From a virus: a DNA stretch of 64,000 nt. This document shows positions 4,294 through 41,871 of this stretch, piece by piece. The notes beneath the pieces were generated by a model. The model ran no database searches, had not been told where the DNA came from, and saw nothing but the letters and a program-made list of their open reading frames with translations. The DNA lies in the IMG/VR virus record IMGVR_UViG_3300042332_001447, positions 1 to 64,000 of that record. One strand, given 5' to 3'. Position numbers and translations under genes: made by a program. The number at the start of each line of letters is the position of its first letter. The stretch's first letter is position 1.

Positions 4294-7200
4294 ATGGCTG
4301 CTGTATCGTCTCCATTACTAATACCTGGGTGTCAACTTTGGCTGGATGCTGCTGACAGCTCCACGCTGTTTGATGCTACAGTTGGTGGTTCTTTAGTAAC
4401 CACCGACGGTACTGCAGTAGCTCGTTGGGAGGATAAATCTGGAAACGGTAGACATGCTACTCAATCTACTGCTAATGCAAGACCTCTTTTAAGAACAAAC
4501 GTTAAGAACGGAAGAAACGTTTTAAGATTTGATGGTTCTAACGATTTTATATCTGGCTCATCCTTCCCCTCTGTTTCTCAGTATAGTATATTTGCTGTAT
4601 ACAAGCGAACCGGATCGAATACAAACGCGTTTGGTAATTTTACCTTTGTTTTTGGTATAGGGAAAAGCGGAGATGGAACCGCTGCAGGTAGATTAACGCA
4701 CATTCATTACGCGAGCACTCCAAATGCATTTTGGTGGAGTGTTAGAGTTGGGGCTGCAGATTTAAGTATTACTCGGAATGACAATTTTAATGTTCATTCT
4801 TGCATTGCTCCTTTAGGAACAGGAACCGCAAGATATCTATTAAATGGGTCAAATGAACAAACAGTAGACGTTTCAACTCTGAATGGCTCAACAAACACTC
4901 CTCTTATATATAATTTAGGAGCAAATACTTGGAACCAGGGTCAATTCATGAATGGAGACATTTCAGAAATCCTTGTCTACAACACTGCTCTTACAACAAC
5001 TCAACGTCAGTCTGTGGAAGGGTACTTAATGGATAAATGGGGTATACCGTTAGCTATTAATTCTCCAAATGATGTAGTTGGTTGCCAGCTTTGGCTTGAT
5101 GCTAGTGACACAAGCACTCTAGCTATGGCTACTAGTGCTGTACGTACTAATTTGCTTACATATAGCGAAGATTTTGATAACACAGCTAACTGGTCTGTTA
5201 ATGGTATTACTTCAAGAACTGCAAATATAACAGCGTCTCCGTTTGGTTTAATGACTGCAGATCTCATTACTGAGAACACCTCAGCTGGGGCACATGGTAT
5301 ATTTCAAAGCAGAAATACTTACCCTGCTGGGGTTTATACGGCTAGTGTTTATTTAAAATATCACAGTAAGCAATTTGCTAGTGTTAATATTTATTCTGGT
5401 ACGACTAGTGCTACCAGAGTAGGGGTTACATTAGATCTCACAACTGGTACAGTGACTCAGGTAAATACACTCGGAACACCGGGTCTTTCGTCATTTTCTG
5501 TTGATACGACCTATGCTTCTCAAGGCTGGTATAGAGTTACAGCAACTATGCAATGTTCCGCTGTTGGTAACAATACGGGTATTGCAATTAATCTTTCTAA
5601 TACCGGCACACCAACGAGTTTTGTTGCGAGTACACTTGACCCGTCATACACAGGTACGAGTGGTGCTATGTTTATTTACGGTGCTCAGTTTGAAGCTGGT
5701 TCAGTTGCAACACCGTATTTGTATTCTGGTCCAGTTAGTAATAGTGTATTTCGACCGTTGAGCGGTAAAAATGTTACTAATCTTTTAACATTTAGTGAAG
5801 ATTGGGGTAATGGCGTGTGGGTTAAAGATAATCTTACAGTAGCTGCTAATGTGTCTGCGTCTCCAATAGGTACCCTTAGCGCTGATAAACTTTTTGAAAC
5901 TGTTACAGCTTCTCCTGTTGCTCACCGTGTTCTTAATCAATTCAACAGCGCAGCACAGCATATACCTATAACGTTTTCAGTTTACGCAAAACAAGCTGAG
6001 CGACAGTTTGTACAATTAGCTGTAGAAGCAGGTAGTAACTCAAACATATTTACTACTATTTTTGATATTACGAGCGGGGCAGGAGCAGTAGCTGCTTCTC
6101 GGGTCACAGGTACTGCTAGCCTTAGTACATCGACAATAACTCATGTAGGTAGTGGTTGGTATAGATGCTCGATTACCGGTACAAACTCCAATACATCAAC
6201 CACTGGTAATATATTTCCCTACATAAATATAACAGATAGACCAGACTTTACCGGTACTCTAGCATCCACTGTTTACCCAGCTTATATTGGTTCATCTCTA
6301 TCTGGGGTACTCGTTTGGGGTGCTCAACTCGAATACGGTTCACTTTCAACATATGTCTCAACTGGCGCTAGTACTGTTACAGCTCTTATTACTAGCGATC
6401 CGTTAATTGATAATTCTCTTATTGCACATTGGAGTAATAAGTCTGTTAATAGTAGTGTTTCTAGTATTAGCGATTTTACAGATGTCGGAGGTTCGGTTGT
6501 AACCAGACCAGTTTACAAAACAAATATACAAAATAACTACGGTGTCGTGAGATTTAACGGTATTTCACAATATTTAACAGATTATTTTAACGGTACTAAC
6601 TATACTTCTCAAACTGTGTTTGTTGTAGCTACACTCGGAACGAGTACAGGGGGTTGGGATAGATACTACACGCAAAACTCATCTGCTGTTGCTGATTATA
6701 CTATAGGTTCCGGGCATTATATACCTATAATTAGGAACACGACAACTCAAACAGTCGGTTCATACGCCAACGGTATAGCTGTTAGTACATTTACCCCTCG
6801 CGGTACCGTGGTTGCTGATATAATGACGTCTACACATACAGGGTCAGCTATACAGTGTTTTTTAAACGGTTATCCGAGTTCTTCTACATATGCTCATTCA
6901 CTTAACTATAATGTCGTAATGTCGAGACTCGGAGCTAATTTTGATAGTACTATCGGTTCTTACCTAAGAGGAGGTATAGCTGAAGTTATTGTATACAATC
7001 AATGTTTAAGTTTAACAGAACGTCAAGCTGTTGAAAATTATTTAGCGAGAAAATGGAATTTACCTCGTACCGTGCGAGCTCTCCAAGATGGTAACTGGTA
7101 TGATCCTAATACGTGGAGTATTAATGCTGAAAGCTCATCATTTAACGTACCAGCATCTACTGACGACGTATTCGCAAATAGTTTTAATATTAATATAAGC

Positions 7201-13038: not shown

Positions 13039-14550
13039 CTAAAAATTCCACAACCTTACTGCTCTTGTCGTACCATTTACGTTTAGAAGGAGAAAGTCTC
13101 CAGTAGCTGTAACTGGAGTTGTGAAAGTACTAAGTTCACTTGTAAGTGTGAGATTTGCAGGTTTTATGTCGAGGGTTTGTAAGCTAAACGAGTTTGCAAA
13201 TATAGTACCTGTTGCAGAAATATCCCCTGTAACTGTTAGAGGTCTATTAGGAGCAGGGGTGTTTATACCAACATTACCATCTATAAATACATTTTTCGTT
13301 GCAGACAAGGTGCTATTAACAACGAAAGTGTTACTCGGTAAGGTAGGCCAAACTCCTGTAGGTATATCTACGTTAATACTCACATAATTATCATCTGTAT
13401 TAACATATAGAGCTTTCTGCCCTATATTGAGATGTCTAGTGGCGGATATCTCTCCAGACACTGTTAATTGCTTGTTTGGGGTTGTGCCTATGCCAACGTT
13501 ATCATTTACTGTTAGGTTTTGAGAAACTAGTGCACTACCTATGACATGTAAATCAAACAACGGGGTTAAAGTATTAATACCTACTCTACCATTTGAACTC
13601 TTAACATGTAAAACATTACCTGCTACAGTTAGGTCTTTTTTGATTGACGCGTCACTATTTGCTAAAAGAGAACCACTTAACGATACATTTGTAAGTACAT
13701 CAAGTGAATTATCAATTTTTGTGTATGCGTTTGTATAAAAATTTGTTAAAGAAGGGTTATAAAAGAAACCAGGTCCACTAAAAACCCCATTTGACACGTT
13801 AATTTTACCGGTACCAGATATGTCTCCAACAACAGTTAGATCAGCATTCGGTGTTATGGTGTTAATACCGACTTTATTAGACGTAGAATTAACAAAAAAC
13901 GTATTATTATCCACTCTAAGAGATTTACCTACTACTAATTCCCCATTAAGTAGTGTGCTCCCGTTTACTTGCATGTCACCACCAAATACGACAGCAGTCT
14001 GTATAGTGAAAGAGTTGGTGATGAGAATATTGTCACACGTAATATTTTTTACGAGTGTGCTTCCGTCCTCAATATATAAAGCCCATTTAGGGCTATTGAG
14101 TATTAAAGCGGTATCTGTATTATGGGAAATCTTTGCAGAGTGAGTTTCTTTTGGTGAGTTTGCAGATAACACTCCCTGTAGAACAAAAGGTCCTTGAAAC
14201 GGAGAATCTGGGGACGCAATCGGATCGTACGATGAGTCTGGGTATCTTGGATCAGGGCTCGGATCAGTGTGATGGTTGTGTCTATGGAATTTACTCCTGT
14301 ATACCCAATTTTTTTATATAAGCTAGATTATATTGGGAGTGGACTATATCATCAACCTTACGGTTGCGGGGCGCTATTGAAGTCTTATTGTTTGGCTACT
14401 CAACTTCTAGTCTCTGCACCTTCTTAGTACTCTGTGCCTTCCTAAGCTTGGCTCAGGATTAAGTTTCTCAACTCTTCCCCTGAATTCACCCCGTTTGCAT
14501 ATACTATTACTAGTATAAGCCACTATAAATTAATGGAATCTTGTTGACAT
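13039..14550 (-). CDS. Tail-fibre-like protein, gene split by a group I intron (exons 14550-14533 and 14295-13039)
   Basis: Spliced product 424 aa. Exon 1 encodes MSTRFH; exon 2 continues SKFHRHNHHTDPSPDPRYPD, a His/Asp/Pro-rich N-terminal segment of about 45 residues. Residues about 90-390 contain five or so copies of a fibre repeat of the form VGINTxTPxxxLxVxGdIS (VGINTITPNADLTVVGDIS; VGINTLTPLFDLHVIGS; VGIGTTPNKQLTVSGEIS; VGINTPAPNRPLTVTGDIS), common in phage fibre and bacterial surface proteins. A short C-terminal domain closes the protein. AAGGAG lies 18 bases before the ATG. Without splicing, translation stops at once: the intron begins with TAA. A GTG at 14172 would give a shorter protein but would discard a clearly coding N-terminus. 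Confidence 0.75.
14296..14532 (-). ncRNA. Group I intron, subgroup IA-like, ORF-less, 237 nt
   Basis: Helices read on the minus strand. P1: exon CCAU plus UA pairs with UAGUGG, giving the U.G pair at the 5' splice site. P2: UAUACUA-GUAA-UAGUAUA. P3: CGGGG/CCCCG. P4: UUCAGG/CCUGAG. P5: AGUU-GAGA-AACU. P6: GCC/GGC. P7: AGACU/AGUC within CAGAGACUAG and AUAUAGUCC. P7.1: GAAGU/ACUUC, typical of IA introns. P8: CAACC-GUAA-GGUUG. P9: CCCAAU/AUUGGG. The intron ends in G, and the start of exon 2 (GUAAAUU) pairs with the P1 loop as P10. The conserved AAUCCUGAGCC and GGUGCAGAGACUAG are diagnostic. No endonuclease ORF lies inside. Confidence 0.9.
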
Positions 14551-14648: not shown

Positions 14649-14810
14649 ATGAATAAAAAAAGAGAAAAAAAATGTTTTCATGTACCTGTTAACTGTAAGC
14701 AGTGCGGAGATATAACCCATCATAACAAGTATTACTACAAAAAAATGAATGGCGTAGTATTTTGTTCTCAGCGTTGTTGCGTTTACATTTCAGGACTGAG
14801 TTTCATCTGA
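14649..14810 (+). CDS. Small zinc-finger protein, C-terminus altered by element insertion
   Basis: 53 aa, start ATG 14649 following a basic stretch (MNKKREKK). Two Cys pairs, CKQCG and CSQRC about 22 residues apart with intervening His residues, make a compact zinc finger, probably nucleic-acid binding. The last six codons (SGLSFI) come from the left end of the TnpB-type element. Removing 14787-15152 would give a different short tail ending at TGA 15189-15191. The host gene may originally have been longer. Earlier in-frame starts exist only in low-complexity A/T sequence. Confidence 0.5.
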   Translation: MNKKREKKCFHVPVNCKQCGDITHHNKYYYKKMNGVVFCSQRCCVYISGLSFI

Positions 14811-14840
14811 GTGACTAAAGATCACTCAGATGAAACTCAG
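14796..14840. repeat. Perfect 19-bp palindrome at the left end of copy 2
   Basis: CTGAGTTTCATCTGAGTGA, loop CTAAAGA, then its exact reverse complement. In copy 3 the corresponding left end is only a quasi-palindrome and the loop reads TCTTTAG, the reverse complement. It may also act as a transcription terminator hairpin, although no T-run follows. Confidence 0.85.
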
Positions 14841-14886
14841 CCTTGCAAAAGATAAATAAAAAAGATAAATAAAAATAACCCCTTCA

Positions 14887-15147
14887 ATGGAAACAGATCT
14901 AAAACAAATAATAAAAAGACCTTTCAGTGGCGTAGCAAGGAAGACTCCGTCTTCCTTTTGGATGCTGATACCAAGTAAATCAAAGGCACAAAGAAACTAC
15001 TTTGGAGTTTCATCGGCAGGAACTGCCGATTACAGGCATGGAGCTAAAATAAGACTATTAAAGCAATTTAAAAGCAGCGGCTATGAAGTGTCTAAAAAGA
15101 AAGAACATTTATGTTCTGAAGCCAAACGATCTTTAGTCGTTCGGTAG
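14887..15147 (+). pseudogene. ORF of the non-autonomous element: TnpB C-terminal tail only
   Basis: 86 codons. The last ~45 residues (DYRHGAKIRLLKQF ... SEAKRSLVVR) match the C-terminal tail of TnpB as it overlaps the omega-RNA region. The first ~40 residues (METDLKQIIKRPFSG...) match nothing in the intact TnpB. There is no RuvC Asp, Glu or zinc knuckle. The ORF may exist only because the RNA scaffold happens to be open in this frame. Confidence 0.5.
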
Positions 15148-15172
15148 TTCACATTATGTATATCTTAACGGA
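15012..15172 (+). ncRNA. Omega-RNA-like guide RNA, copy 2
   Basis: It contains the same three hairpins as copy 1: ATCGGCAG-GAA-CTGCCGAT (15012-15030), GAACAT-TT-ATGTTC, and a terminal hairpin with one G-to-A change that breaks a pair in its stem. The presumed guide is about 15153-15172. The 5' end is unknown and may extend to the extra hairpins from about 14937. Because the scaffold is conserved, the TnpB of copy 3 could load it in trans; that is inference. Confidence 0.5.
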
Positions 15173-18587: not shown

Positions 18588-20510
18588 GTGAAAACTAAAC
18601 GATCACCAAAGCAAACTGCGTCAAAGCAGAACGCATCAGACGTATCATCTGATATAAGCAAAAAAGATACTTCTCCAAGAGTGCATCAAAGAGAAAAAAT
18701 AAATTTTAATCTCAATATAAAAGGACTTGATTGGACGGAGAAACAAAAAGCATTTATAGAACTTGCTACTCACAAAGACACTAGAGTTGTATTTTTAAGT
18801 GGTCCTGCCGGTACAAGCAAGGCACAGCCTCTTGATGCTAAATTATTAACACCTAATGGATGGCGTTTAATGGGAGACATACAACCAGGGGACAAGGTAT
18901 ATGGTAGAGACGGCACACCTGTTAAAGTAATAAGTATACATCCTCAAGGTATACAGGATATTTTTAAAGTAACGTTTTCTGATGGCACATCGACAGAATG
19001 TACTGATGATCACTTATGGCTTACTAAGACATACTATGATCGTACTTTTGAGAAAACTAGAGAGACTGTCAGGTTATCGCGTCAAAAAAGAGGTTTACGT
19101 GAATTAAAGCATAGTCAAGCAAGAATTGACTCCTCTAAGAACGGTACTGTAAAGACTCTAAAAGAAATTAGAGAAACTTTGTATGTCGGTGGTAGCGAGA
19201 ATATTAATCACACGATACCTATTGTTGATGTTTTACAATTTCCTGCTCGGGAACATATAATACATCCGTATATTATGGGTGTATTATTGGGTGATGGATG
19301 TTTACGTACTCGTATTGGTATAACGAGTGCTGACTCCGAGCTTGTTGAACGGGTAAGAGAGTTTTTACCGAGTGATATGCAACTCAAGTATCTAGACAGA
19401 CCGTACGAATACAAGATCATGGGTAAAGAGAGAAGCACTAACTATTTCTTAAAAGAATTAGCTCGAATGGAATTAAGAGGTAAGTATTCATACAATAAAT
19501 GTATACCTGATGAGTATCTTTTTGATTCACAAGAAAATAGACTGTGGTTACTAAAAGGTTTAATGGATACAGATGGTTTCGCGGTTTCAAAACAAAGCTA
19601 TGTAGGTTTTTGCAGCACGTCTGTTGATTTGATGGATGGTGTTCGTTTTTTGGTAGAATCTCTCGGTGGAGTATGTTCAGCGGGCCATGCCTCTGATGGT
19701 AACGATTATATGTATAATGGCGAATTACGTAAAGGTAGACCGTCATGGTCGTTTTTTGTAAACTTACCTGTAAATCCGTTTAGTTTGAGTCGTAAGCAGG
19801 TATTAGTGAAGCAGCGAACTAAATATTTTCCACAGCGATACATAACAAACGTGGAATATGTAGGGCAAAAAGAAGCTCAGTGTATTTTAGTGGATAGTGC
19901 AGAACACTTATATCTCACAAATAATTGTATTGTTACACATAATACCGCGCTGGCAGTATTCTGCGCTCTTCAATTAATAAACACAAAGAGAGCTAGTGAG
20001 TTAGTTTACGTTAGATCATTAGTCGAGAGTGCATCCCAGAGCTTAGGTTCTCTACCTGGAGAGATGGGTGAAAAATTTAAACCGTTTGCTATGCCTCTTA
20101 TAGATAAATTAGAAGAGTTTCTATGCACAGGGGATATAAAGAAATTATTCGCTGATGAAAGAGTTAAACCTACACCTGTTAACTATCTTAGAGGTGCTTC
20201 ATACAACGCAAATGTAGTTATTGTAGATGAAGCGCAAAATCTCGATTTTAATAAAGAGCTCGTAACTGTTATAACCCGTATAGGTAAATTTAGTAAATTT
20301 TTTATACTCGGGGATCCTATGCAAACAGATCTTAAGCATAAAGAGCAGTCCGGATTTAAGCCTATGTTTGATCTCTTTAATGACGAGCAATCTCAAAAAG
20401 AAGGAATATATTGTGTAGAATTCACTAAGGATGATATCATGCGTTCTGAACTTCTCAAGTTTATCGTAGAAAAAATTGAAAATTATCAAGCTATAAAGAA
20501 ACAAATGTAG
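18588..20510 (+). CDS. phoH: PhoH-like ATPase precursor interrupted by an intein
   Basis: 640 aa precursor from GTG 18588. The extein parts, residues 1-78 and 453-640, make a 266-aa PhoH-type P-loop ATPase. The Walker A is GPAGTSK at 72-78, continuing after the intein as TALAV; Walker B is VVIVDEAQN at about 544-552; ILGDPMQTDL follows at about 575-584. PhoH proteins are widespread in phages, related to superfamily 1 helicase motors and possibly active on RNA. The intein sits in the catalytic loop, so the ATPase is inactive until splicing. The next gene starts 2 bases after the stop, suggesting one transcript. Confidence 0.88.
   Translation: MKTKRSPKQTASKQNASDVSSDISKKDTSPRVHQREKINFNLNIKGLDWTEKQKAFIELATHKDTRVVFLSGPAGTSKAQPLDAKLLTPNGWRLMGDIQPGDKVYGRDGTPVKVISIHPQGIQDIFKVTFSDGTSTECTDDHLWLTKTYYDRTFEKTRETVRLSRQKRGLRELKHSQARIDSSKNGTVKTLKEIRETLYVGGSENINHTIPIVDVLQFPAREHIIHPYIMGVLLGDGCLRTRIGITSADSELVERVREFLPSDMQLKYLDRPYEYKIMGKERSTNYFLKELARMELRGKYSYNKCIPDEYLFDSQENRLWLLKGLMDTDGFAVSKQSYVGFCSTSVDLMDGVRFLVESLGGVCSAGHASDGNDYMYNGELRKGRPSWSFFVNLPVNPFSLSRKQVLVKQRTKYFPQRYITNVEYVGQKEAQCILVDSAEHLYLTNNCIVTHNTALAVFCALQLINTKRASELVYVRSLVESASQSLGSLPGEMGEKFKPFAMPLIDKLEEFLCTGDIKKLFADERVKPTPVNYLRGASYNANVVIVDEAQNLDFNKELVTVITRIGKFSKFFILGDPMQTDLKHKEQSGFKPMFDLFNDEQSQKEGIYCVEFTKDDIMRSELLKFIVEKIENYQAIKKQM
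18822..19943 (+). mobile_element. Class 3 intein with LAGLIDADG homing endonuclease
   Basis: 374 residues (79-452 of the precursor). Block A starts with Ala79 (AQPLDAKLLTPNGW) instead of Cys. Block B is TECTDDHLWLT, with Trp144 after the His. Endonuclease motifs are IMGVLLGDG (about 229-237) and LLKGLMDTDG (about 321-330). Block F is AQCILVDSAEHLYL, with Cys432. Block G is IVTHN, with Thr450, and the +1 residue is Thr453. Trp-Cys-Thr at these places is the WCT triplet that defines class 3 inteins, where the block F Cys starts the reaction in place of residue 1. The endonuclease keeps both Asp motifs, so homing may be active. Confidence 0.88.
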
Positions 20511-20512
20511 AT

Positions 20513-20929
20513 ATGAAAGCTCTTATAGACGAAATATACACCGAACAAGAATGTTCACATATTAAAACGTTCTTTAGTGAAGATTCATCTTTAAGAGATA
20601 TTATAAAAAAAGCTATAGGGGATAAAATAATACTGAGTAGCGAAAAAATACTACTCAGTAGCCCTTTGGATATAGTCTACCTAATTTGCTTGACAAGTAA
20701 ATTTGCAACTTCTGATGATGAGTGTCATCGAGTTGCTATTACCGTGTTTCAGTTTATTGAAAAGATCGATGATTCACTACCCTATTTGAGTGAGGATGGT
20801 TGTACATTACTTTTTGCAAGTAAGGTTCTTATGGCGTTATCATTCAGAGTAAAAGCTATTGAACATCGTTGGAAGTATCGTGGTGCACCTTCACCTAGTT
20901 TTTACATGTTAGGACTGAGTGAAAGCTGA
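20513..20929 (+). CDS. Unknown protein, 3' end truncated by TnpB element
   Basis: 138 aa, helical, not recognised (MKALIDEIYTEQECSHIKTF). It begins 2 bases after the phoH stop and is probably cotranscribed. The last seven codons (MLGLSES) lie inside the left end of the TnpB element, which starts after TTTAC 20901-20905. A coding-like tail continues beyond the element at 22290-22361, one base out of frame with simple excision, so the original protein was probably about 22 residues longer. Confidence 0.6.
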   Translation: MKALIDEIYTEQECSHIKTFFSEDSSLRDIIKKAIGDKIILSSEKILLSSPLDIVYLICLTSKFATSDDECHRVAITVFQFIEKIDDSLPYLSEDGCTLLFASKVLMALSFRVKAIEHRWKYRGAPSPSFYMLGLSES

Positions 20930-20948
20930 GTGATCTTTAGTCACTCAG
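20926..20948 (+). repeat. Left-end subterminal hairpin of copy 3
   Basis: 8-bp stem with loop TCTTTAG, identical to the loop of the right-end hairpin at 22258-22280. It lies within a larger imperfect palindrome bounded by CTGAGT and ACTCAG. Confidence 0.8.
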
Positions 20949-21030
20949 ATGAAACTCAGCCTTTAAAATATTTGTAAAGAAATTAATATTTTCATTAGAA
21001 AAATACTTCCGCTTTGATTAAATATAATAA

Positions 21031-22272
21031 GTGGAAGCACCAAAGACATATTTTAAAGCGTTCAAGTTTAGACTTGATCCCAAAGAGGATCAACTCACCT
21101 TGCTTTCAAAGCACTTTGGTTGCACAAGGTTTCTTTATAACTATTTCTTAGGTGAAAAGATTCGTCACTACAAAGATAACGGAACTACTTTGAACTTTAA
21201 CAACACATGTATATCTCTAACTTCTTTAAAAAAACAAGAAGAATACGAATGGCTTTCAGAAGTTAACGCTCAGTGTCTCCAAGGCTCTTTGAAGAATTTA
21301 GAGAACGCATATCAAAGATTCTTTAAAAAACAATCAAAGTTTCCTCGTTTTAAGTCAAAGAAAGTTAATAGTGACTCGTTTTGTTGCCCTCAGCATGTAA
21401 CCATAGAAGGAAACAAAATCTTCGTTCCTAAGTTTAAAGAAGGCATTCCTTTCACAAAGCACAGAGAGATCAAAGGAGAAGTAAGAAGTGCAACGTTTTC
21501 TAAAGTCCCTTCTGGAAAGATGTACGTTAGTATTCTTTGCGAGTTGCCTTTAGAGACTCCTCTAAAAAAGACAGGAAAGAAGATTGGAGTAGATTTAGGC
21601 TTAAAAGACTTCTTGATAACCTCTGATGGCAAAAGATTTGCTAATCCAAGATTTTTAAAACAATTTTTAAAAGAACTTAAAGACCAACAAAAACATTTTA
21701 ATAGAAAACAAAAAGATTCGAAAAGAAAAGACAAACAAAGACTGAAAGTAGCTTGTTTGCATGAGAAGATAACCAATTCTCGTACTAACATGCAACACCA
21801 GATCAGCTCTTTTCTTGTTAAAAACTACGATCTAATAGCATTGGAGAGCCTTAATGTAAAAGGAATGATGGCTAACCATAGGTTAGCACAGTCTATTAGT
21901 GATGTAGCATGGAGTGGCTTTGTCTCCAAGTTAGAATACAAAGCAAAATGGTATGGAAAGGAAGTCATTCGTATTGAAACTTTCTTTCCATCCAGTAAAA
22001 CATGCAGTTGTTGCAATCAGGTCAAATCCAAACTAACTCTCAAAGAAAGAGATTGGACGTGTGTTTCTTGTAACACAAAGCATGACAGAGATATTAATGC
22101 CGCAACAAATATTTTGCAAAGAGGCATTACGATCTTATCGTCTGGAACAGACGATTACAGACATGGAGCTAAAATAAGACCCGTCAAGGAGAAATCTTTG
22201 AAAGGCACAAGCGTTGAGATGTCTAAAAAGAAGAATGTGCGCAAGTACATTCTGAAGCCGAACGATCTTTAG
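21031..22272 (+). CDS. tnpB: TnpB RNA-guided nuclease
   Basis: 413 aa from GTG 21031. The N-terminal part (FKFRLDPKEDQLTLLSKHFG ... FLYNYFL) is the usual OrfB helix-turn-helix region. The RuvC catalytic residues are present: Asp188 in GVDLGLKDF, Glu272 in LIALESLNVKGM, Asp354 in HDRDINAATN. The zinc knuckle between the last two has pairs SKTCSCC (325-328) and TCVSC (344-347). TnpB cuts DNA next to a short 5' motif using an omega RNA derived from its own 3' end. The last ~40 codons lie in the RNA scaffold and are poorly conserved as protein. All catalytic residues are intact, so it is probably active. Confidence 0.9.
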   Translation: MEAPKTYFKAFKFRLDPKEDQLTLLSKHFGCTRFLYNYFLGEKIRHYKDNGTTLNFNNTCISLTSLKKQEEYEWLSEVNAQCLQGSLKNLENAYQRFFKKQSKFPRFKSKKVNSDSFCCPQHVTIEGNKIFVPKFKEGIPFTKHREIKGEVRSATFSKVPSGKMYVSILCELPLETPLKKTGKKIGVDLGLKDFLITSDGKRFANPRFLKQFLKELKDQQKHFNRKQKDSKRKDKQRLKVACLHEKITNSRTNMQHQISSFLVKNYDLIALESLNVKGMMANHRLAQSISDVAWSGFVSKLEYKAKWYGKEVIRIETFFPSSKTCSCCNQVKSKLTLKERDWTCVSCNTKHDRDINAATNILQRGITILSSGTDDYRHGAKIRPVKEKSLKGTSVEMSKKKNVRKYILKPNDL

Positions 22273-22308
22273 TCGTTCGGTAGTTCACAAATAACGGTCA
22301 AGCAGATA
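22137..22308 (+). ncRNA. Omega-RNA-like guide RNA, copy 3
   Basis: Hairpins: ATCGTCTG-GAA-CAGACGAT (22137-22155), GAATGTGC-GCAA-GTACATTC (22233-22252) and the terminal hairpin (22258-22280). The first two stems differ from copies 1 and 2 by paired, compensatory changes while the adjacent stretch TACAGACATGGAGCT is kept. A possible further stem UAAUGCC/GGCAUUA lies just upstream in tnpB. The presumed guide begins after TTCAC, about 22289-22308. Ends are approximate. Confidence 0.65.
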
Positions 22309-22361: not shown

Positions 22362-22397
22362 ACTTGATTTTTAGTTAGGAAAATAATAAATTTTTAA

Positions 22398-22892
22398 ATG
22401 GAAAATTATAGTGCTCTACAAGCTGAATTATCATCTACACTTTTTCATCTTAGTAGTTCAATCCAAGCTTTTAGCGACACACTAACATCTATACCACAGC
22501 ATCCTTATGATGCAACAAAGGCGATGTATTTTCCTGTGGATTATAAATTTCCAACGGTATACGATGTTAATGTACCAGAGGACGTATGCTTAAACACTAT
22601 TATAAAGGGGTTCGATACAGTACATCATAGATATCAAGAAAAAATACTCGATTACCTATCTTGCCCTAGTGAGTACGATTTAACTGATGCAGGTAATCAG
22701 TTTACTATACTAGCAGAACATCTCGGAGAAAATAAATATATTGTAACTGAAGACAAATATCGAATGTATCTAGAAGCGTTAGAGTTAATTCAGGGTATAG
22801 ATATAACAAGTGTTAATGAAGATAACTGTGTGGAGTTAATACATAAAATATGTTTTACTGTTTTACAGGCTTTACAGAAAAAAACAATCTAA
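22398..22892 (+). CDS. Unknown helical protein
   Basis: 164 aa, not recognised. Mostly helical and acidic (YSALQAELSSTLFHLSSSIQ ... EDNCVELIHKICFTVLQAL), with no membrane segment or catalytic motif. AATAATAAATTTTTAA precedes the ATG. It is the last plus-strand gene before the large minus-strand tail block and overlaps the convergent spike gene by 4 bases. Confidence 0.55.
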   Translation: MENYSALQAELSSTLFHLSSSIQAFSDTLTSIPQHPYDATKAMYFPVDYKFPTVYDVNVPEDVCLNTIIKGFDTVHHRYQEKILDYLSCPSEYDLTDAGNQFTILAEHLGENKYIVTEDKYRMYLEALELIQGIDITSVNEDNCVELIHKICFTVLQALQKKTI

Positions 22893-28211: not shown

Positions 28212-31200
28212 TTAGCGGCTAATCTCTTCCCAATCCATAGATGCAAACATACCAGAACCATTTGAGGTATCTGATGCAGCAACCAATGTTAATTCAAAAG
28301 GAGTTTTTGTTAAATTGTTTCGTTCTAATTGAAACTTAAACAAAGCTTCTTTGAGAATATCCAAATTCGGAGAACCTTGATTAGAAGAATTTAAGAAGCC
28401 ACTTGCTAAAATTCTTCCCCCCGCATAGCTTGTTCCTGTAATGTTGTATTGAACGGCACTATCAACTCCTGCATCAACCCAACTTCCACCTGTCGTGACT
28501 CCGCTTGCTTTTACCTGCCAGTTGTAGTTTATACCATTTCCTTGTCCGAGTATTGATAAAGCCGTTAAAATAACAATTCCGTCCAATCTGTCTGGAGTTG
28601 CTTTTAATCGAATTGTAATAATTGGGTAAAACGTGCCAGCTACTGCAAACGTTCTTGGTGCAGTTATTGGAATAGAGACTGCTTGTTGTAAGCCTCTTAA
28701 CTCATAACCACCTTCAGAAATAACAGTAGAGCATATTTGCTTCATTGTACGAGAACCATCGGTTGCTCCTTTGTTAGTAATTTCATACCTCAAAGGTAAC
28801 GAAGCAGTTGTAATGTACGTTGAAAAAATTAAGTTTGCATGATGGAATGAGTGACAAAGAATAAACTGACCATTAATTACAAAGCCGGTTCGAACAGTTC
28901 CAACTCCCAACCATTCAATGTCCATCCATTGAATTTGAGCTTTTGTAACATCTAGTTTAAAACCAGACGGACCTGTGCCGTCGAGCTTGTCGCCGTTCCA
29001 AGAAGTTTGCGGTACAATTGTTTCCGAAGACGGAGAACCGTACACCAAACTCCTCTCAACAAAGCTTGGTGTAGCGCTATCTAACTGAAAATAGATTCCG
29101 TTGTCATGACCAAAGTAACCTACTCTTTGAATTACATTTTGAGCAGACGGAGCCATTACAAGCGTATTCATAATCTGCAAAGATTTTCCGGCCTGGTATG
29201 AGAAGACTTTTGTGGTTTCACGGATCACTGAAGAACCGGACAAACTACTAACAGTCATTTCGATTAAACCTTGATTTTGACTAAATGAAGTAGAACCACC
29301 AGCTGCTGTCAAAGAACTCCAAAGATTATTATCTCGATATCTATGAGAAGAATCAAAGAGGGTTAAAGGGCTGGAAACTCTTAAGCGACCGAATGCATCA
29401 GTATTCAGAGCACCAGTTACAAAGGAAACAGGTACCGGGTTTGTTACATTAACATTCAGGGAAGAAGTTGCGGGTACTACTGTAACGTTATTGTTGTTAA
29501 GATCCTTTAAGGTGATTGAGTTAAGAATATTAACGCCCGTAGTTGGGTTAGTGACTGTTATACTAGTTAGTTGATTTGTTAAAGAGACCGCACTAACAGG
29601 GTTTAGCACTGTCACATTACCTGAAACTGCTACCGTGTTTAAAACATCGACTGACGTAACCGGGTTTAATACTGTAATACCGGTAAGTTGATTTGTTACA
29701 GAAACAGCGCTAATCGCGTTAAGAATAGTTACCGAGCCAGATACATCAACGGTGTTATTCACACTCAATGATGTTACAGGGTTAGTGATCGTGATACTCG
29801 TTAGTTGATTTAAAACTGTAATTGCACTAATTGGGTTTAAAACAGTTACGGAACCGGAAATAGGAAATGTCGACGAAGCATGTACGTGTACATCGTCTGT
29901 AATTACGATCCCTGTTAACTGATTTGTTATAAAGACTGAGCTAACAGGGTTTAAGATTGTAATACCTGTTAATTGATTTGTAAGAGAAATCGAACTGACA
30001 GAATTTAAAACTGTAACATATAAAGGTGTACCACTCACTGTACCAAAAATACTGTTAGCTGTAAGTGTCTTTTCTAGAGTTATTTGAATGTTTTGATTAG
30101 ATGTAATCTCGTTTAAGAACGTGTTAGAAGCGGTTAGCAGCTCTTCAACATTGTCTACATTAAGATTTATATCTTGTGCATTTAATGTAATATCATATTC
30201 TCTTGCAGTTAGCGCATCAAGTAGAGTGATAATTCTTTCTTGTTTAACGGTCGTAGAAAATTCAACCCCTGTGAGATACGCTACACCAGTGCTTAATGCC
30301 GTAGTTTTTTCTTCTATATCGTTAACTATAGCTGTAAGACTAGTTAACTCTGTGATACAGTTTGTGTAAAAATTATTTGCTGCAGTAAGTGTATAAATTT
30401 GATTAGTTGCAGTAGCATAGTCTTTTGCTGTAAGAGAGTCTAAAAGAATCTGAGTTTCATTAAATTCTCTTTGATTTAGAGAGGTCAGAGAGTCTATGAG
30501 GATCTGAGTCTCGTTGAATTCATTTTGATTAAGAGCCGTTAATGAGTTTAATAACGTCTCTATCTTTACTGTAGGTAAATCGATACTTGCAACATTTAAC
30601 GTGACATTATATTCTTTAGCTGTTAATGCGTTTAATAAAGTGTTTTGTATCTCTTGGTTATTAACAATTTCATAACCCGTAGTAGTGAGTGTTGATAGCT
30701 GGGTGTTAGTTACGTTGCTACTGGCGGTTAATATAACACTTAACGTATTTGCAGAACTTAAAAGATATTCAATATCATCTGTATTTAAATTAAAATTATA
30801 CTCACTACTTGTTAATGAGTTTAATAAAGTAATAATAGCTGTTTGATTAGTTGCAGTAGCATAATCTTTTGCTGTTAACGTGTTCAATAGAGTCTGAGTC
30901 TCATCGAATTCTTTTTGACTAAGAGCTGTAAGAGAGCTTAAAAGTGTTTCTACTCCATCAGTATTAATTTCGAGATTATCTAAATTAACTTCTAATTCAT
31001 CTGTGTTTGCAGTTAACTGATGTAGCAGTGTAATAATCTGACTCTGTTTATTATCCTGTAACCCAGTTAGAGAGTCTAAAAGAGTTTGAGTTTCGTTAAA
31101 TTCTCTCTGATTAAGAGCTGTAAGTGAGCTCAAAAGAGTCTGTGTTTCGTTGAACTCTCTTTGGTTTAAAGATGTCAGAGAGTCTAAAAGAGTTTGAGTT

Positions 31201-31847
31201 TCATTGAATTCGACCCGTGTCAAAGAAGTCAATGAACTTAAAAGAGTCTGAGTATCATTAAATTCTCTCTGATTAAGAGTCGTAAGGGAGCTCAAAAGGG
31301 TCTGAGTGTCATTAAATTCTCTTTGGTTTAGTGATGTCAGAGAGTCTAAAAGAGTCTGAGTTTCGTTGAATTCTCTTTGGTTAAGAGCTGTTAGAGAGCT
31401 TAAAAGGGTCTGTGTGTCATTAAATTCTTTCTCTAAAAATGATGTAAGAGAGCCAAAGTTAGTGAGATGTACGCGTAAGGAAGATGTTTCAGCGTACACA
31501 GTAACGTTATTACTATTCTTATCAGCTATAGATATTGTATCTATTTCAGGATCTAGATCTTGATTTACAACTCTTAATGCATTGTAGCTACCATCTTCAT
31601 ATGTAAAAGACGTAACATCACATCTAAGAGATGATTCGTTATCCACTATTTCAACACCACCTATACGTATGTCAGCTGCGCATAACGAAAATGTTAAGTC
31701 AGATAGATTAGTTATGTAACATGCTCTAGCGTAAAACTCTCTCGGTAAACTCGTACTTTCAAACGCAACCCACGAAAATGTTTCAGCCTTACCGAAATTA
31801 AACGGCTGAGCTGTAAGGGATGGTACGAATTCAAAAGGAGGTGTCAT
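28212..31847 (-). CDS. Long tail fibre with coiled repeats and C-terminal binding domain
   Basis: 1211 aa. Residues about 130-300 and 410-490 repeat a ~19-residue unit of the form LNQREFNETQTLLDSLTS, a helical coiled-coil shaft. About 610-790 repeat SVSLTNQLTGITVLNPV-type beta units. From about 800 (GALNTDAFGRLRVSSP) to the end there is a globular domain of ~400 residues (RETTKVFSYQAGKSLQI ... FRLKATPDRLDGIVILTA-like strands) found at the tips of phage fibres. Architecture: N-terminal attachment, long shaft, terminal receptor-binding head. The gene ends 1 base before the next start region and belongs to the minus-strand late block. Confidence 0.65.
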   Translation of the reverse strand: MTPPFEFVPSLTAQPFNFGKAETFSWVAFESTSLPREFYARACYITNLSDLTFSLCAADIRIGGVEIVDNESSLRCDVTSFTYEDGSYNALRVVNQDLDPEIDTISIADKNSNNVTVYAETSSLRVHLTNFGSLTSFLEKEFNDTQTLLSSLTALNQREFNETQTLLDSLTSLNQREFNDTQTLLSSLTTLNQREFNDTQTLLSSLTSLTRVEFNETQTLLDSLTSLNQREFNETQTLLSSLTALNQREFNETQTLLDSLTGLQDNKQSQIITLLHQLTANTDELEVNLDNLEINTDGVETLLSSLTALSQKEFDETQTLLNTLTAKDYATATNQTAIITLLNSLTSSEYNFNLNTDDIEYLLSSANTLSVILTASSNVTNTQLSTLTTTGYEIVNNQEIQNTLLNALTAKEYNVTLNVASIDLPTVKIETLLNSLTALNQNEFNETQILIDSLTSLNQREFNETQILLDSLTAKDYATATNQIYTLTAANNFYTNCITELTSLTAIVNDIEEKTTALSTGVAYLTGVEFSTTVKQERIITLLDALTAREYDITLNAQDINLNVDNVEELLTASNTFLNEITSNQNIQITLEKTLTANSIFGTVSGTPLYVTVLNSVSSISLTNQLTGITILNPVSSVFITNQLTGIVITDDVHVHASSTFPISGSVTVLNPISAITVLNQLTSITITNPVTSLSVNNTVDVSGSVTILNAISAVSVTNQLTGITVLNPVTSVDVLNTVAVSGNVTVLNPVSAVSLTNQLTSITVTNPTTGVNILNSITLKDLNNNNVTVVPATSSLNVNVTNPVPVSFVTGALNTDAFGRLRVSSPLTLFDSSHRYRDNNLWSSLTAAGGSTSFSQNQGLIEMTVSSLSGSSVIRETTKVFSYQAGKSLQIMNTLVMAPSAQNVIQRVGYFGHDNGIYFQLDSATPSFVERSLVYGSPSSETIVPQTSWNGDKLDGTGPSGFKLDVTKAQIQWMDIEWLGVGTVRTGFVINGQFILCHSFHHANLIFSTYITTASLPLRYEITNKGATDGSRTMKQICSTVISEGGYELRGLQQAVSIPITAPRTFAVAGTFYPIITIRLKATPDRLDGIVILTALSILGQGNGINYNWQVKASGVTTGGSWVDAGVDSAVQYNITGTSYAGGRILASGFLNSSNQGSPNLDILKEALFKFQLERNNLTKTPFELTLVAASDTSNGSGMFASMDWEEISR
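30881..31425 (-). repeat. Tandem ~57-bp repeats encoding the fibre shaft
   Basis: Consecutive imperfect units encode LNQREFNETQTLLSSLT-type repeats. Copies differ mainly at synonymous sites and by S/D and E/D exchanges. Further copies lie at about 30425-30560. Such arrays expand and contract by recombination. Confidence 0.75.
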
Positions 31848-34255: not shown

Positions 34256-35269
34256 TTACGGAAATACTACAAGTCTTATACCACAAAATTCTGCGCTGTA
34301 GTTACGCGTACTTACTCCGTTATTAGTACTACCTGTAAAGCTTGTAACATTACCCATATCTATAACCCGTATAGTAGCCGTGTCACCTACAGAAACTAAG
34401 CCTGCATGTACTGCAGCTGTGTTAATATCTGAGTCTGCTGTATATGGATTACTACCCCAGACGTTCCCTGTGCTAGTACCAGTAACAGTAATAATGAAAG
34501 GTATAAATCCGCATGCTCTCGTAGATGGGGTAACAGTCGGGGTCGGGGTGGTTGTTGGTGTGCACGTTGGGGTAGTTGTGATCGTCGGGGTTATCGTCGG
34601 GGTTACTGATGGAGTAGGAGTGTTTGTTGGTGTAACAGTATTAGTTACTGAAGGTGTTATAGTTATTGTAGGGGTGTTTGTAGGGGTCGGTGTTGGTGTG
34701 AGATTTCGTGTAAGAGTTGGAGTTGGTGTTACCGTAGGAGTTGGTACTGGGAAATTGTTCTGTACACTAGTTGTGTAATTGAACATGGTTGTGCTCGAAG
34801 GTAGTATGTAAAAATTACTGATAGAATTTGTTTTTATCAAATCATTAAAATCTACAGATAGGGATGTTAAGGAATACGTAGCACTAATGCTATTAATACT
34901 AAAAGGCATTACTATATTATATGTATCAACAAAACCGGTAACCGAACATAATTGCTGAGTGAATACTGCTGATATTGACGTATTGACTGGGTATTGGGCT
35001 AGAGCTACATAATTAACTATCGTAGAACCTGGTGCAAACGTTGCATTTAACGTAATAGTATTAGGCGGTGTTACATACAGTGTACATGTCTTGTTGTATT
35101 GCGAAAAAAAGAAATTATACGCACCGTACGGGTATGCAGATGTATTGTAAGTGTGCGGAAGTGTAAATAAGCCTAGATTTATCGTACTACCACCAGTGAG
35201 AGGCGAAAAGGTAACATTTGCGGATTTACCAGTGTAATTAAGAGATTTAAATTTTATCACAGTAGACAT
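34256..35269 (-). CDS. Structural protein with Thr-Pro repeat linker
   Basis: 337 aa. Residues 1-175 are beta-rich and look like two Ig-like or jelly-roll folds (SVDFNDLIKTNSISNFYILP). Residues about 178-260 are a Thr-Pro linker (PTPTPTNTPTITITPSVTNT). The C-terminal ~75 residues (ACGFIPFIITVTGTSTGNVW) form a small separate domain. The same linker type occurs in the next two large genes. The linker probably provides a long stiff spacer between virion and binding domain. Neither globular part is recognised. Confidence 0.6.
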   Translation of the reverse strand: MSTVIKFKSLNYTGKSANVTFSPLTGGSTINLGLFTLPHTYNTSAYPYGAYNFFFSQYNKTCTLYVTPPNTITLNATFAPGSTIVNYVALAQYPVNTSISAVFTQQLCSVTGFVDTYNIVMPFSINSISATYSLTSLSVDFNDLIKTNSISNFYILPSSTTMFNYTTSVQNNFPVPTPTVTPTPTLTRNLTPTPTPTNTPTITITPSVTNTVTPTNTPTPSVTPTITPTITTTPTCTPTTTPTPTVTPSTRACGFIPFIITVTGTSTGNVWGSNPYTADSDINTAAVHAGLVSVGDTATIRVIDMGNVTSFTGSTNNGVSTRNYSAEFCGIRLVVFP

Positions 35270-35275
35270 ATATTG

Positions 35276-37474
35276 TTATATATTTACACTCCAGCCTCTA
35301 CTTGCTAGTGTTAGTATATCTGCTGCTGCTGTTGTACTCGCAGTAGATGAACCTGGGTTACCAAACAGGCTTAGTGTTCCGTTATTTTTGTTAAATACGA
35401 CAAGTTTTTGTATAATATCTACAATATCAATTGATTGCATCGCGCAACCATGAGCTGCAATACTCGTGAGATTACTACAGCCGGTTATATCTAGACTCGT
35501 TAAAGAGGTATTAAAATAAGCGGTTATATTTTGTAGTGCTGAGCAGTTAGTTACGTTTAGAGTTGTTAAGTTAGCTGATACGTAGCACTCGATACTTGTA
35601 AGTGAAGGTGAATTGGAGTGATTGACTGTTTGCCAACCGAACGGAGCTGTTCGTGCTTTAATGAGATTGTTCATCCCTGCAAAATTACCAGTAGCTAAGT
35701 TACCAGGAGAGAGGGGTAGAAAAATTTCAGTAATACCGTTTACATTATTTGTCAGTATTTGAGTGTTTCTATACCACACATCAGTGCCTGGTGTTCTTGT
35801 AAAGTTACTGTTTAATGTAAGATTTAACGGGGCGTTATCTACGATTACCGTGCCAGCTCGGTTTGACGGAGTCGGGGTAGGGGTTATAGTTGCAGTCGGG
35901 GTTATTGTAGGAGTGATTGTTGGGGTTGGGGTTGGGGTAATTAGTGGGTTTAATTCAAAATCCAGATCGCATAGAGGTGGCGGAGTCGGTGTACGGGTAG
36001 GTGTTGGCGTAGGTGTCGGCGGAATACAAAGAGGTACGTCACAAGATGTGTTAGCTTGAGGTGGTGGATAGCCGGTACCTGGGTTACCCTGATACACTAA
36101 CGGTAAGTTATTTACACAGTTACTTAAAGCGTTCGGTGGGGTAATGTGAGTTGATGTTCCGCTATTGCTTATACTAGGTATATTAGGATCTTCAGATCTT
36201 ACAAACCCGACACTATTCTCTACCTGTACAGTGTATACTACGTCATTGTTCTTATTTCTAGCTCCTAATAAACGGGAGACAGGCTTTGTAATAACGCTAC
36301 CTGTATTGACTACATTCACTGTTTTTGGTACTTGAGGATTAATAGGTCCTAATACAGTAGAGCTTGAATTACGAGAATCTGTATTACAGCTATGAGCTGT
36401 AATCGATGGGAAAAACATATGATAGCTATTAGCAGAGCGTATGTAGTTATGAACTACATCATAGTTTCTTGGATCATTTACATCATTAGGAAATATATCC
36501 GTGTATGCAAAATACTGTGGATCAGGTGCTGCGTGTCTAGATACTGTTAGAAGCGGAGTTTCATCTCCAAGATCCCATACTATTTTTTCAAAAGGAAAGC
36601 TACCAGGTACACTATATCTTGCAGTAATATGCGCGCTTAAAGGAGCTGTGCCGTGAGTCGGTGATGATAGTATACAAACTTTTGCAGTTGGTAGAATTTC
36701 TTTTACCTCTATTAAAAATGTCTGTAAATTAGTCTGCGTTGTAATATCTGATACCTCTTCAAATTTAAAACCTGTAGGAGTCTCACAATCAACAGCGGGT
36801 GGTTCATATTTCCATAATTTGGAAAATTCAGCAGACGGGTAAGTTTTATCCCATTTAACAGGGTTTCTACCGACTTCTTTAAGCTCAGTCCAGCTCCAAT
36901 CTTTACAATGTGTTTGTAAGCACGCAGTTTGGTTGTCCCAAGTTCTTGCTACTCTCCCGTTGAGTATACACGAAGCATCATCCCATGATACTCTGTTTTT
37001 TATATCAACAGCGTTGCACGTGATTTTATCCCAGTACCATAAAATATCAAAACTACCTATACACGGGTTACCTTCTTCTATAAAATTCTGCTTACGTTTA
37101 ACTTCGTACTGAGTTAGCTTTACTGTGTAAATTCCTGGCATTACATATATATGGTCGATGTAATGATTCGGGCAGCTTACTCTTACTATATTAGTATCAT
37201 CGTTATAGTAGTCTCCAAAATCCCATTCAAAATACGTTGATGTTCCATTTACAGGCGGATTTGCTTGAGATGTACTATGAAACTGTACAATCAAGCCAGG
37301 GGAATAACCAGAGGTATAACTAGTAGTTAGATAAGCAGGTGTTATAGGAGCTCTATTAACTGAACTCGGTATAGAAGAAGGAAATGAACAGGATTGAACA
37401 TTAGGTACACCATGATCCCAAGAGTATGTATTAAATACTGTTGAACTCGATACTATGGTAAACCCTGTTGTCAT
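35276..37474 (-). CDS. Structural adhesin with PKD domains, Thr-Pro linker and LRR-like end
   Basis: 732 aa. A PKD domain lies at about residues 55-135 (YFEWDFGD ... DHIYVMPGIYTVKL). A second PKD-like stretch lies at about 265-370 (KIVWDLGDETP). After a Cys-containing segment come Thr-Pro linkers (about 480-535, PTPTPTRTPTPPP). The end, about 600-732, is leucine-rich-repeat-like (LTTLNVTNCSALQNI; LTSLDITGCSNLTSI). PKD and LRR domains are usual in extracellular adhesion proteins. TATAAATA lies 7-8 bases before the ATG region. Expected location: virion surface. Confidence 0.65.
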   Translation of the reverse strand: MTTGFTIVSSSTVFNTYSWDHGVPNVQSCSFPSSIPSSVNRAPITPAYLTTSYTSGYSPGLIVQFHSTSQANPPVNGTSTYFEWDFGDYYNDDTNIVRVSCPNHYIDHIYVMPGIYTVKLTQYEVKRKQNFIEEGNPCIGSFDILWYWDKITCNAVDIKNRVSWDDASCILNGRVARTWDNQTACLQTHCKDWSWTELKEVGRNPVKWDKTYPSAEFSKLWKYEPPAVDCETPTGFKFEEVSDITTQTNLQTFLIEVKEILPTAKVCILSSPTHGTAPLSAHITARYSVPGSFPFEKIVWDLGDETPLLTVSRHAAPDPQYFAYTDIFPNDVNDPRNYDVVHNYIRSANSYHMFFPSITAHSCNTDSRNSSSTVLGPINPQVPKTVNVVNTGSVITKPVSRLLGARNKNNDVVYTVQVENSVGFVRSEDPNIPSISNSGTSTHITPPNALSNCVNNLPLVYQGNPGTGYPPPQANTSCDVPLCIPPTPTPTPTRTPTPPPLCDLDFELNPLITPTPTPTITPTITPTATITPTPTPSNRAGTVIVDNAPLNLTLNSNFTRTPGTDVWYRNTQILTNNVNGITEIFLPLSPGNLATGNFAGMNNLIKARTAPFGWQTVNHSNSPSLTSIECYVSANLTTLNVTNCSALQNITAYFNTSLTSLDITGCSNLTSIAAHGCAMQSIDIVDIIQKLVVFNKNNGTLSLFGNPGSSTASTTAAADILTLASRGWSVNI

Positions 37475-37481
37475 GTATTAC

Positions 37482-37489
37482 TATTTATA
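37482..37489 (-). promoter_or_regulatory. Late-promoter-like TATAAATA
   Basis: TATTTATA on the plus strand reads TATAAATA on the minus strand, 7 nt upstream of the ATG at 37474, in the 42-base gap after the preceding gene. Confidence 0.55.
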
Positions 37490-37516
37490 TAAATCTTATC
37501 TTTGAAAGCTATATAT

Positions 37517-37765
37517 TTATAATTCTTTTTTTAAAAGAAAGCTTTGAAATTCTTCTTCAGAGATTTCTTGAGCACCAGCTTTAATGAACCCCTCTGCAAT
37601 CTCAGGCATTGCTGCAATGAGAACGTTACCTTGTTCATCCATTGGGGCATCAGTTACTGGAGCAAACCAAGTCTCAGCTTCATTGGAAGGATATCCAGAA
37701 GCTTTATCCATTGTGTCTCTAATTGTTTCGTATGTTACTGAATTAGTTTTGAAGTATTTGTTCAT
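37517..37765 (-). CDS. Small acidic protein of unknown function
   Basis: 82 aa, acidic ([35 protein letters not shown]), not recognised. Its start overlaps the stop of the 1369-aa adhesin gene by 4 bases, so the two are translationally coupled. A chaperone or assembly partner for that adhesin is possible, since fibre genes are often followed by small assembly factors. This is inference from position. Confidence 0.55.
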
Positions 37766-40700: not shown

Positions 40701-41871
40701 TTTCATTTTGTAAACTTAAAAATCGATTTGTACCACTAAAACTCAAAGCGTAATTATTGTATATATTTTCTCTAGATAGAGTCGGTCTTGAACTTAACAC
40801 TGTTTGAGTTAATGTAAAGTTACCTGTTACTCTATCATTCCATCTTGCTATTCTTTCTCCTATATTATTAGGGGTAGTTGTACCCTCTATATCTGTAAAA
40901 TACGTGCTACTATCTTCAGTGCTATACCATGTAGTAAGCTGTGGTATATCTATTGTATTGTTAACGCTTATATTCAGTGTATTTGAGTCTACAGTAACCG
41001 TGTTCATCATGTTTACACCGGTTACTGTGAATATGAAATTGCAGTTATTAAAATCACTAACATCTACGTTTAATACTTGAGATGATAATAATGTCCAGCC
41101 GTTTGTATTTGTGCCGCTTACTTTCCAATTATATGTTAGCGCAGGTTCAGGTACACCGCTCCATACCCCGAGAGTTGACGAGAGATTAAAAACAGAAGTT
41201 CTTGTTATAGACGGCGCTGTTACATTAATAACAGAGGCTACATAGGTAGTTGTTGGAGTGGGGGTGTTTGTAGGTGTAACTGACGTAGTAGGTGTAGGTG
41301 TCGGGGGTTCAGGAGTACCTGAGGGTGTCGGAGAGTTAGTGGGAGTGCTCGTGGGAGTTACTGAAGGAGACTGCGTAATAGTAGGAGTTACCGAAGGTGT
41401 TATTGTAAGGGTAACTGAAGGGGTTGGAGTAGAAGTACTAGTAGGTCTCGGTGTTATGGTAGGAGTTACTGTAGGAGTCGGGGTCTCTGTAGGAGTTGGA
41501 GTCGGGGTAGGCGTTGAAGTTTCTGTCGGAGTAACAGTGGGTGTCACAGAGCTCGTTGGTGTTTGAGTGGGAGTTTCTGTCGGGGTAGGAGTTGGAGTCG
41601 GGGTCTCGGGTGTACCAGATGGTGTTAGCGAAGGAGTCGGAGTCTGGGTTGTAGTCGGGGTAGGTGTTACAGGGTTTACAATTAATTTAACAACCTGCTG
41701 TACTGTTACTCCGTTATCTGTAAACAATATAGGTATTTCATATTCTCCAGGTTCTGTCGGAGCTGTACCAGATAGAAGGCTAACGTATGCTCCAGGAACG
41801 AGCGTGTTAGATTTTTCAATACTAACCCATTCAGGAGAATTAGGATCTAAATTAAAAGGAGTTTGAGACAT
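37762..41871 (-). CDS. Giant adhesin with Thr-Pro linker and several LamG-like domains
   Basis: 1369 aa. Order: N-terminal Ig-like domain (1-68), long Thr-Pro linker (about 70-210), Ig-like domain (about 215-305), LamG-like domain (about 312-545, ending [10 protein letters not shown]), several Ig-like modules (about 550-840), a LamG-like domain (about 850-1150, with [13 protein letters not shown]), and a C-terminal LamG (about 1155-1369, [19 protein letters not shown]). The last is very close to the N-terminal LamG of the plus-strand adhesin at 4294. Likely a long flexible receptor-binding fibre. Expression is coupled to the next small gene. Confidence 0.7.

What the first reader, a model, noticed from the sequence alone, without database searches (positions are those of the whole stretch)
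20906..22308. TnpB with an omega RNA supported by covariation between element copies
Two hairpins upstream of the terminal one keep their pairing while their sequences change: GGCAG/CTGCC versus GTCTG/CAGAC, and GAACAT/ATGTTC versus GAATGTGC/GTACATTC. The region between them (TACAGACATGGAGCT) is kept. The protein tail translated over the same bases is poorly conserved. Selection therefore acts on RNA structure, and a phage carries an apparently intact RNA-guided nuclease with its guide RNA.
Basis: partly seen in the sequence, partly recalled or inferred. Interest (0 to 1): 0.7.

Follow-up and report, generated by a model that had tools for sequence, protein, structure and literature searches.

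The report
Phage TnpB with many guide-RNA-only copies
A large phage carries an intact-looking RNA-guided DNA cutter of the TnpB type with its guide RNA built into the end of the gene, and contigs that are probably parts of the same phage hold about a dozen short mobile copies that keep only the guide RNA, so one cutter could be aimed at many insertion sites.

Summary
20906-22288 is a TnpA-less IS200/IS605-type element with an intact tnpB (21031-22272), a right end holding a TnpB guide RNA (omega RNA), and a TTTAC motif at the left border. In 77 relatives from phages, bacteria and archaea, 95.8% of cells pair (shuffles 61.5%; slid partners 34-47%). An invariant GGAAC loop matches the invariant 3' GTTCA, as in the ISDra2 pseudoknot. 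GU pairs greatly exceed AC mismatches, so the constraint acts on the transcribed RNA. TnpB in phages is common, so this part is a new member of a known kind. They belong to a family of ~360-bp elements with a left hairpin, late-promoter-like motifs, a conserved non-coding leader and a complete omega RNA. Three contigs that are probably one ~187-kb phage hold 11 of them beside three tnpB genes, and no Y1 transposase was found. Best reading: TnpB, loaded in cis and in trans, cuts element-free sites and drives retention and homing of both element types. Structure is shown; expression, cleavage and homing are inferred.

The parts
20906..22288 (+). TnpB element (1383 bp), TnpA-less IS200/IS605 type
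   Evidence: Removing it joins the host gene 20513-.. to ...SPSFYK*; ends shared with the other copies
20901..20905 (+). TTTAC, target-site motif / presumed TAM
   Evidence: TTTAC, TTTAT, CTTAC or TCTAC precedes the left border in nearly all copies
20915..20959 (+). left-end hairpin CTGAG...CTCAG with TCTTTAG loop
   Evidence: (family I2)
21031..22272 (+). tnpB, 413 aa, GTG start, stop inside the terminal loop
   Evidence: Pfam OrfB_IS605, Cas12f1-like_TNB; NF038281 430 bits over the cut-off of 425; PDB 8h1j/8bf8 about 7e-79
22137..22288 (+). omega-RNA scaffold overlapping the 3' end of tnpB
   Evidence: fold -52.3 kcal/mol, z -6.3; covariance model hit 146 bits
22137..22155 (+). stem 1: ATCGTCTG/CAGACGAT, loop GGAAC 22144-22148
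   Evidence: covaries
22159..22164 (+). stem 2, 5' arm AGACAT
   Evidence: pairs with 22219-22224; 99% of cells paired in 17 sequences; 92.7% in 77
22219..22224 (+). stem 2, 3' arm ATGTCT
   Evidence: 4 pairs with double changes, null 0/2000
22258..22280 (+). stem 4, terminal hairpin CCGAACGA/TCGTTCGG
22283..22287 (+). GTTCA, 3' strand of the predicted pseudoknot with GGAAC 22144-22148
   Evidence: both strands (near-)invariant; same register as ISDra2 (PMC10097598)
22289..22308 (+). presumed guide AAATAACGGTCAAGCAGATA
   Evidence: first 20 nt beyond the right end; no other near-match behind a TTTAC-like motif in the contigs
14787..15152 (+). complete tnpB-less element (366 bp)
   Evidence: left and right ends, TTTAC 14782-14786; removal restores an ORF ending in ATGA
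14796..14840 (+). left-end hairpin, perfect palindrome with inverted loop
14851..14871 (+). two GATAAATA motifs, late-promoter-like
   Evidence: ATAAATA lies upstream of 29 of 129 phage genes, 2.5 expected
14911..15011 (+). conserved non-coding leader with two hairpins; the second, 14993-15011, occurs in three fully compensated versions
   Evidence: 63 nonsynonymous against 9 synonymous codon differences
15012..15152 (+). complete omega-RNA scaffold of the tnpB-less element; guide 15153-15172
   Evidence: model hit 169.5 bits
4..144 (+). omega-RNA scaffold of another copy, cut by the contig start; guide 145-164
   Evidence: 173.7 bits; no tnpB match beyond residues 370-402

Best explanation
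20906-22288 is a TnpA-less IS200/IS605 (IS1341-like) element coding an intact TnpB, with its omega RNA in the 3' end of tnpB and beyond it. TnpB trims its own mRNA, or takes the transcripts of the ~360-bp guide-RNA-only elements, into a scaffold with stem 1, stem 2, terminal stem 4 and a GGAAC/GUUCA pseudoknot; the ~16-20 nt beyond each right end are the guide. The RNP recognises TTTAC-like motifs and cuts DNA that lacks the element at that site (sister copies after excision, co-infecting relatives), and repair from the occupied copy restores or spreads the element. One TnpB pool thus serves both tnpB copies and guide-only copies. Shown: gene integrity, RNA structure, target-site motif, precise borders, many guide-only copies, no Y1 transposase in the contigs. 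Inferred: expression, processing, trans loading, cleavage, homing, and that the three contigs are one phage.
For: TnpB with all catalytic residues and ISDra2 homology. Covariation of stems 1, 2 and 4 in 77 sequences: score 0.631, shuffled 0.145, slid 0.04-0.12. GU 139 against AC 18 over the three stems. R-scape-like null 0/2000 for all stems together in 17 copies. Pseudoknot strands and stem order as in the ISDra2 structure (PMC10097598). Lowered synonymous change over the 5' part of the RNA. Precise removal restores a 361-codon frame at 66 kb and plausible gene ends at 15 kb, 21 kb and 55 kb. Three related phages hold uninterrupted homologues of the 66-kb gene. 11 guide-only right ends and 3 tnpB genes in three contigs. 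No PF01797 in these contigs or in the further phage records searched, although it rings in controls and bacterial relatives. TnpB gene drive is shown for plasmids (PMC11870625).
Against: No RNA or cleavage data. No relative close enough to test a guide against an empty site at DNA level. The leader of the guide-only elements could also pair with the stem-2 3' arm, which might inhibit rather than help. Without TnpA in the contigs, present mobility is unproven.
Confidence: 0.75

Rival explanations
1. The hairpins are transposon DNA ends only (IS605 subterminal hairpins for TnpA), and the perfect arms are kept by DNA template-switch correction rather than by RNA selection.
For: The elements do show such correction: the left end at 14796-14840 has an inverted loop, and another (G001 57 kb) is a perfect palindrome in the other direction.
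Against: Stem 2 joins arms ~55-60 nt apart and still covaries. GU pairs far outnumber AC mismatches (139 to 18), which is strand-specific. Stem order and pseudoknot follow the ISDra2 RNA.
Confidence: 0.07
2. The guide-only copies are ordinary dead PATE/MITE-like decay products that share ends with the tnpB element and have no trans guide function.
For: Ends-only IS605 relatives are known (PMC7290912); one 46-bp ends-only copy and one orphan end are present.
Against: The leader is near-invariant across two phages, yet its variable hairpin exists in three compensated versions with no broken pair. Complete scaffold with no lost stem in the copies; late-promoter-like motifs; one copy (G001 2.6 kb) kept leader and RNA after losing its left end.
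Confidence: 0.3
3. TnpB is a domesticated regulator (TldR-like) or inactive.
For: Phage TldRs exist (PMC13418256, listed).
Against: RuvC residues intact in all close relatives; multiple copies with transposon ends and site-specific borders.
Confidence: 0.04
4. The 3'-end conservation is protein-level.
For: SSGTDDYRHGAKIRP is conserved and resembles the ISDra2 tail.
Against: Same sequence kept where no tnpB exists; frames broken in 4 of 9 guide-only copies; last 25 codons of tnpB fast-evolving.
Confidence: 0.03

Closest known systems
ISDra2 TnpB and its omega RNA (IS200/IS605; PMC8612924, PMC10097598)
   Same: TnpB family (about 7e-79), RNA from the right end overlapping tnpB, stems 1, 2 and 4, GGAA-type loop pairing with GUUCA before the guide, 5-bp TAM at the left end
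   Different: No TnpA; TAM probably TTTAC rather than TTGAT; an extra hairpin between stem 2 and stem 4; sits in a phage
PATE-like ends-only IS605 elements (PMC7290912)
   Same: Left hairpin plus ~150-nt right end without tnpA or tnpB, presumably moved in trans
   Different: Here 11 right ends in contigs of probably one phage; tnpB remnant replaced by a conserved non-coding leader with its own promoter-like motifs
TnpB gene drive of IS elements in plasmids (PMC11870625)
   Same: Proposed outcome: cutting of element-free copies of a multicopy replicon
   Different: Phage instead of plasmid; guide-only elements would share the nuclease; not tested experimentally here
TnpB genes in other phages (398 INPHARED records)
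   Same: Same protein family, often same RNA class
   Different: In the further virus records examined nearly every strong omega-RNA match sits with a tnpB; guide-only elements with this leader were seen only in this phage and G003

Membership tests
IS200/IS605 TnpB | OrfB_IS605 and zinc-ribbon domains with RuvC D-E-D | tested here: met
   D188, E272, D354
IS200/IS605 TnpB | omega RNA at the right end with terminal hairpin near the guide | tested here: met
   stem 4 ends 8 nt before the guide; covaries
IS200/IS605 TnpB | pseudoknot between stem-1 loop and scaffold 3' end | tested here: met
   GGAAC and GTTCA near-invariant and complementary; by sequence only, not by probing
IS200/IS605 TnpB | TAM equal to the target motif at the left border | tested here: inconclusive
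   TTTAC-like motif in nearly all copies; recognition not tested
IS200/IS605 element, autonomous | Y1 transposase TnpA | tested here: not met
   no PF01797 in the phage contigs; filed as TnpA-less (IS1341-like)
IS200/IS605 element | subterminal hairpins at both ends, precise insertion without target duplication | tested here: met
   hairpins in both ends; joined flanks restore frames
RNA-guided nuclease in action | RNA-guided cleavage | not testable with these tools
   needs an assay
PATE / non-autonomous IS605 derivative | ends kept, no transposase or tnpB | tested here: met
   tnpB search finds only residues ~367-411 in these copies
IStron | group I intron inside the element | tested here: not met
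   only group I intron is at 14323-14542 on the other strand, outside the elements

The most novel reading that the evidence does not exclude
One phage runs a dispersed multi-guide OMEGA system: three TnpBs plus about a dozen guide-only mobile loci with promoter-like motifs, whose RNAs have their own conserved leader, each recording its insertion site, so that the phage cuts competitors lacking any of these insertions and converts their genomes at many sites in one co-infection.
Probability: 0.3. Interest if true: 0.75.

Novelty: new variant of a known kind. Interest (0 to 1): 0.52.

Why it matters
A natural set of guide-only elements sharing one TnpB would show that TnpB guide RNAs act in trans, that tnpB coding sequence and guide RNA can be uncoupled by evolution, and that phages may use TnpB for homing as they use homing endonucleases. 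The covariation model gives a ready structure for a TnpB RNA class found in phages, Bacteroidota and archaea.

Tried and rejected
Rfam has no family for this RNA. The ~86-codon frame in the guide-only elements was considered as a small protein and rejected: broken in 4 of 9 copies, 63 nonsynonymous to 9 synonymous differences in the leader. IStron rejected. Additional targets of the guides in the contigs: none convincing. Search for empty sites through neighbouring genes in viral contigs gave no relatives; only diverged uninterrupted homologues of the 66-kb gene were found, and they do not align at the insertion point. An exact-motif scan of bacterial genomes found nothing, but TnpB relatives there carry the same RNA class. 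A long-range pairing of the leader AGACCTTTCA with TGAAGTGTCT does not vary enough to be tested and competes with stem 2; left open. The literature library lacks most subscription journals and preprints, so prior reports of guide-only TnpB elements in phages may have been missed.

Full report
What is there. The window is the first 64 kb of a 95.8-kb IMG/VR virus record. At 20906-22288 lies a 1383-bp element: TTTAC at the left border, a left-end hairpin, tnpB (21031-22272, 413 aa) and a right end closing in GTTCAC. TnpB matches Pfam OrfB_IS605 and the Cas12f1-like zinc ribbon, NCBI's IS200/IS605 RNA-guided endonuclease model and the ISDra2 TnpB structures at about 7e-79. The RuvC residues D188, E272 and D354 are invariant among close relatives.

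The observation. Both reported hairpins are real. I collected 17 homologous right ends from this record, from contigs G001 and G002, and from three further phage contigs. Under a null that reassigns the inferred substitutions of each branch to random positions, the stems together show 12 pairs with compensated double changes and 32 such cells, never reached in 2000 runs. The hairpin ATCGGCAG/CTGCCGAT alone has two double-changed pairs (P 0.235 for that measure) but no broken pair in 15 sequences (0 of 2000 for pairing). A covariance model built from these ends finds the same RNA at the 3' end of tnpB in dozens of phage, Bacteroidota and archaeal relatives. On 77 of them 95.8% of cells pair, the covariation score is 0.631 against 0.145 shuffled, and sliding the partner by one base drops it to about 0.12. 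That alignment was fitted to the model, so the counts lean towards the structure, and a few of its rows are weak matches. GU pairs outnumber AC mismatches 139 to 18, which a DNA-level explanation does not predict.

Architecture. Stem 1 closes on an invariant GGAAC loop; the scaffold ends in invariant GTTCA. In ISDra2, -5U to -3C pair with -105G to -103A in the stem-1 loop to form the pseudoknot common to Cas12 guide RNAs, followed by stem 2, stem 3 and terminal stem 4 (PMC10097598). Order and register agree. Synonymous change is reduced over the 5' part of the RNA (dS 0.50 against 1.66 for G000/G004, 0.09 against 0.73 for the two G001 copies), while the last ~25 codons evolve fast at the protein level. 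These are small numbers of sites.

The guide-only elements. The other two copies in the window lack tnpB. G000, G001 and G002 carry 11 such right ends and three tnpB genes. G001 and G002 come from one metagenome; the three contigs have similar GC, share hardly any genes beyond these elements and one paralogous family, and are cut at their ends inside element copies. They are probably one T4-like phage of about 187 kb, but this is inference. A complete guide-only element of 353-374 bp has the left hairpin, usually one or two GATAAATA motifs, a ~100-nt leader and the full scaffold. ATAAATA is the strongest word upstream of this phage's genes (29 of 129, 2.5 expected), as expected for T4-like late promoters (own knowledge). 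The leader hairpin next to stem 1 occurs as GAAACT/AGTTTC, GAACAT/ATGTTC and CTAGTT/AACTAG with no broken pair. The leader's variation is not protein-like. The same element occurs once in a related phage, G003, but its leader was not found in the 12 other records checked. One copy (G002 5 kb) joins the guide-only leader to a tnpB-type right end, which suggests exchange between the two element types.

Mobility and sites. Joining the flanks at TTTAC-like|GTTCAC| restores a 361-codon gene at 66 kb and natural gene ends at 15, 21 and 55 kb. G003, G010 and G015 have uninterrupted homologues of the 66-kb gene, too diverged to test the guide. No Y1 transposase was found in these contigs or in the further phage records searched, whereas it is present in bacterial genomes with related tnpB. 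Movement would need TnpA from the host or another element, or TnpB-induced recombination.

Mechanism. The best-supported account is retention and homing: TnpB with a guide copied from the flank cuts element-free DNA at that site. This has been shown for IS elements on plasmids (PMC11870625). A phage replicating in many copies and meeting relatives in co-infection is a similar setting; this step is inference. That guide-only RNAs load the same TnpB follows from their near-identical scaffold but is untested.

Novelty. TnpB in phages is common (398 INPHARED records), omega RNAs at tnpB ends are well known (PMC10278001), and ends-only IS605 derivatives are known (PMC7290912). The dense family of guide-only elements with a dedicated, covarying leader is, as far as the searchable papers show, not described; most subscription papers were not searchable. 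I rate it a new variant of a known kind.

Noticed in passing
window 14323-14542 (-): Group I catalytic intron (80.8 bits, gathering 50) just upstream of the ORF 13039-14172 on the minus strand; not part of the IS605 elements.
   Followed up: no
window 18588-20510 (+): PhoH-like protein with a LAGLIDADG insertion also resembling insertions in terminase genes, probably an intein.
   Followed up: no
window 14796-14840 and G001 57.6 kb: Left-end hairpins that have become perfect palindromes in opposite directions, one with inverted loop: looks like template-switch (quasipalindrome) correction.
   Followed up: partly
window 55348-55374 (-) and G001 22367-22401: An orphan right-end hairpin and a 46-bp ends-only element, the smallest derivatives of the family.
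   Followed up: partly
G000-G002, upstream of genes: ATAAATA and the variant ATAAGTA are strongly enriched upstream of ORFs, a late-promoter-like motif.
   Followed up: partly
window 29500-31500 and 34500-41700: Long in-frame repeats (54-nt period; GTNGGNGT-type runs) in large genes.
   Followed up: no
G002 4963-5343 (-): Chimeric guide-only element with a tnpB-type right end, a sign of recombination between element types.
   Followed up: partly
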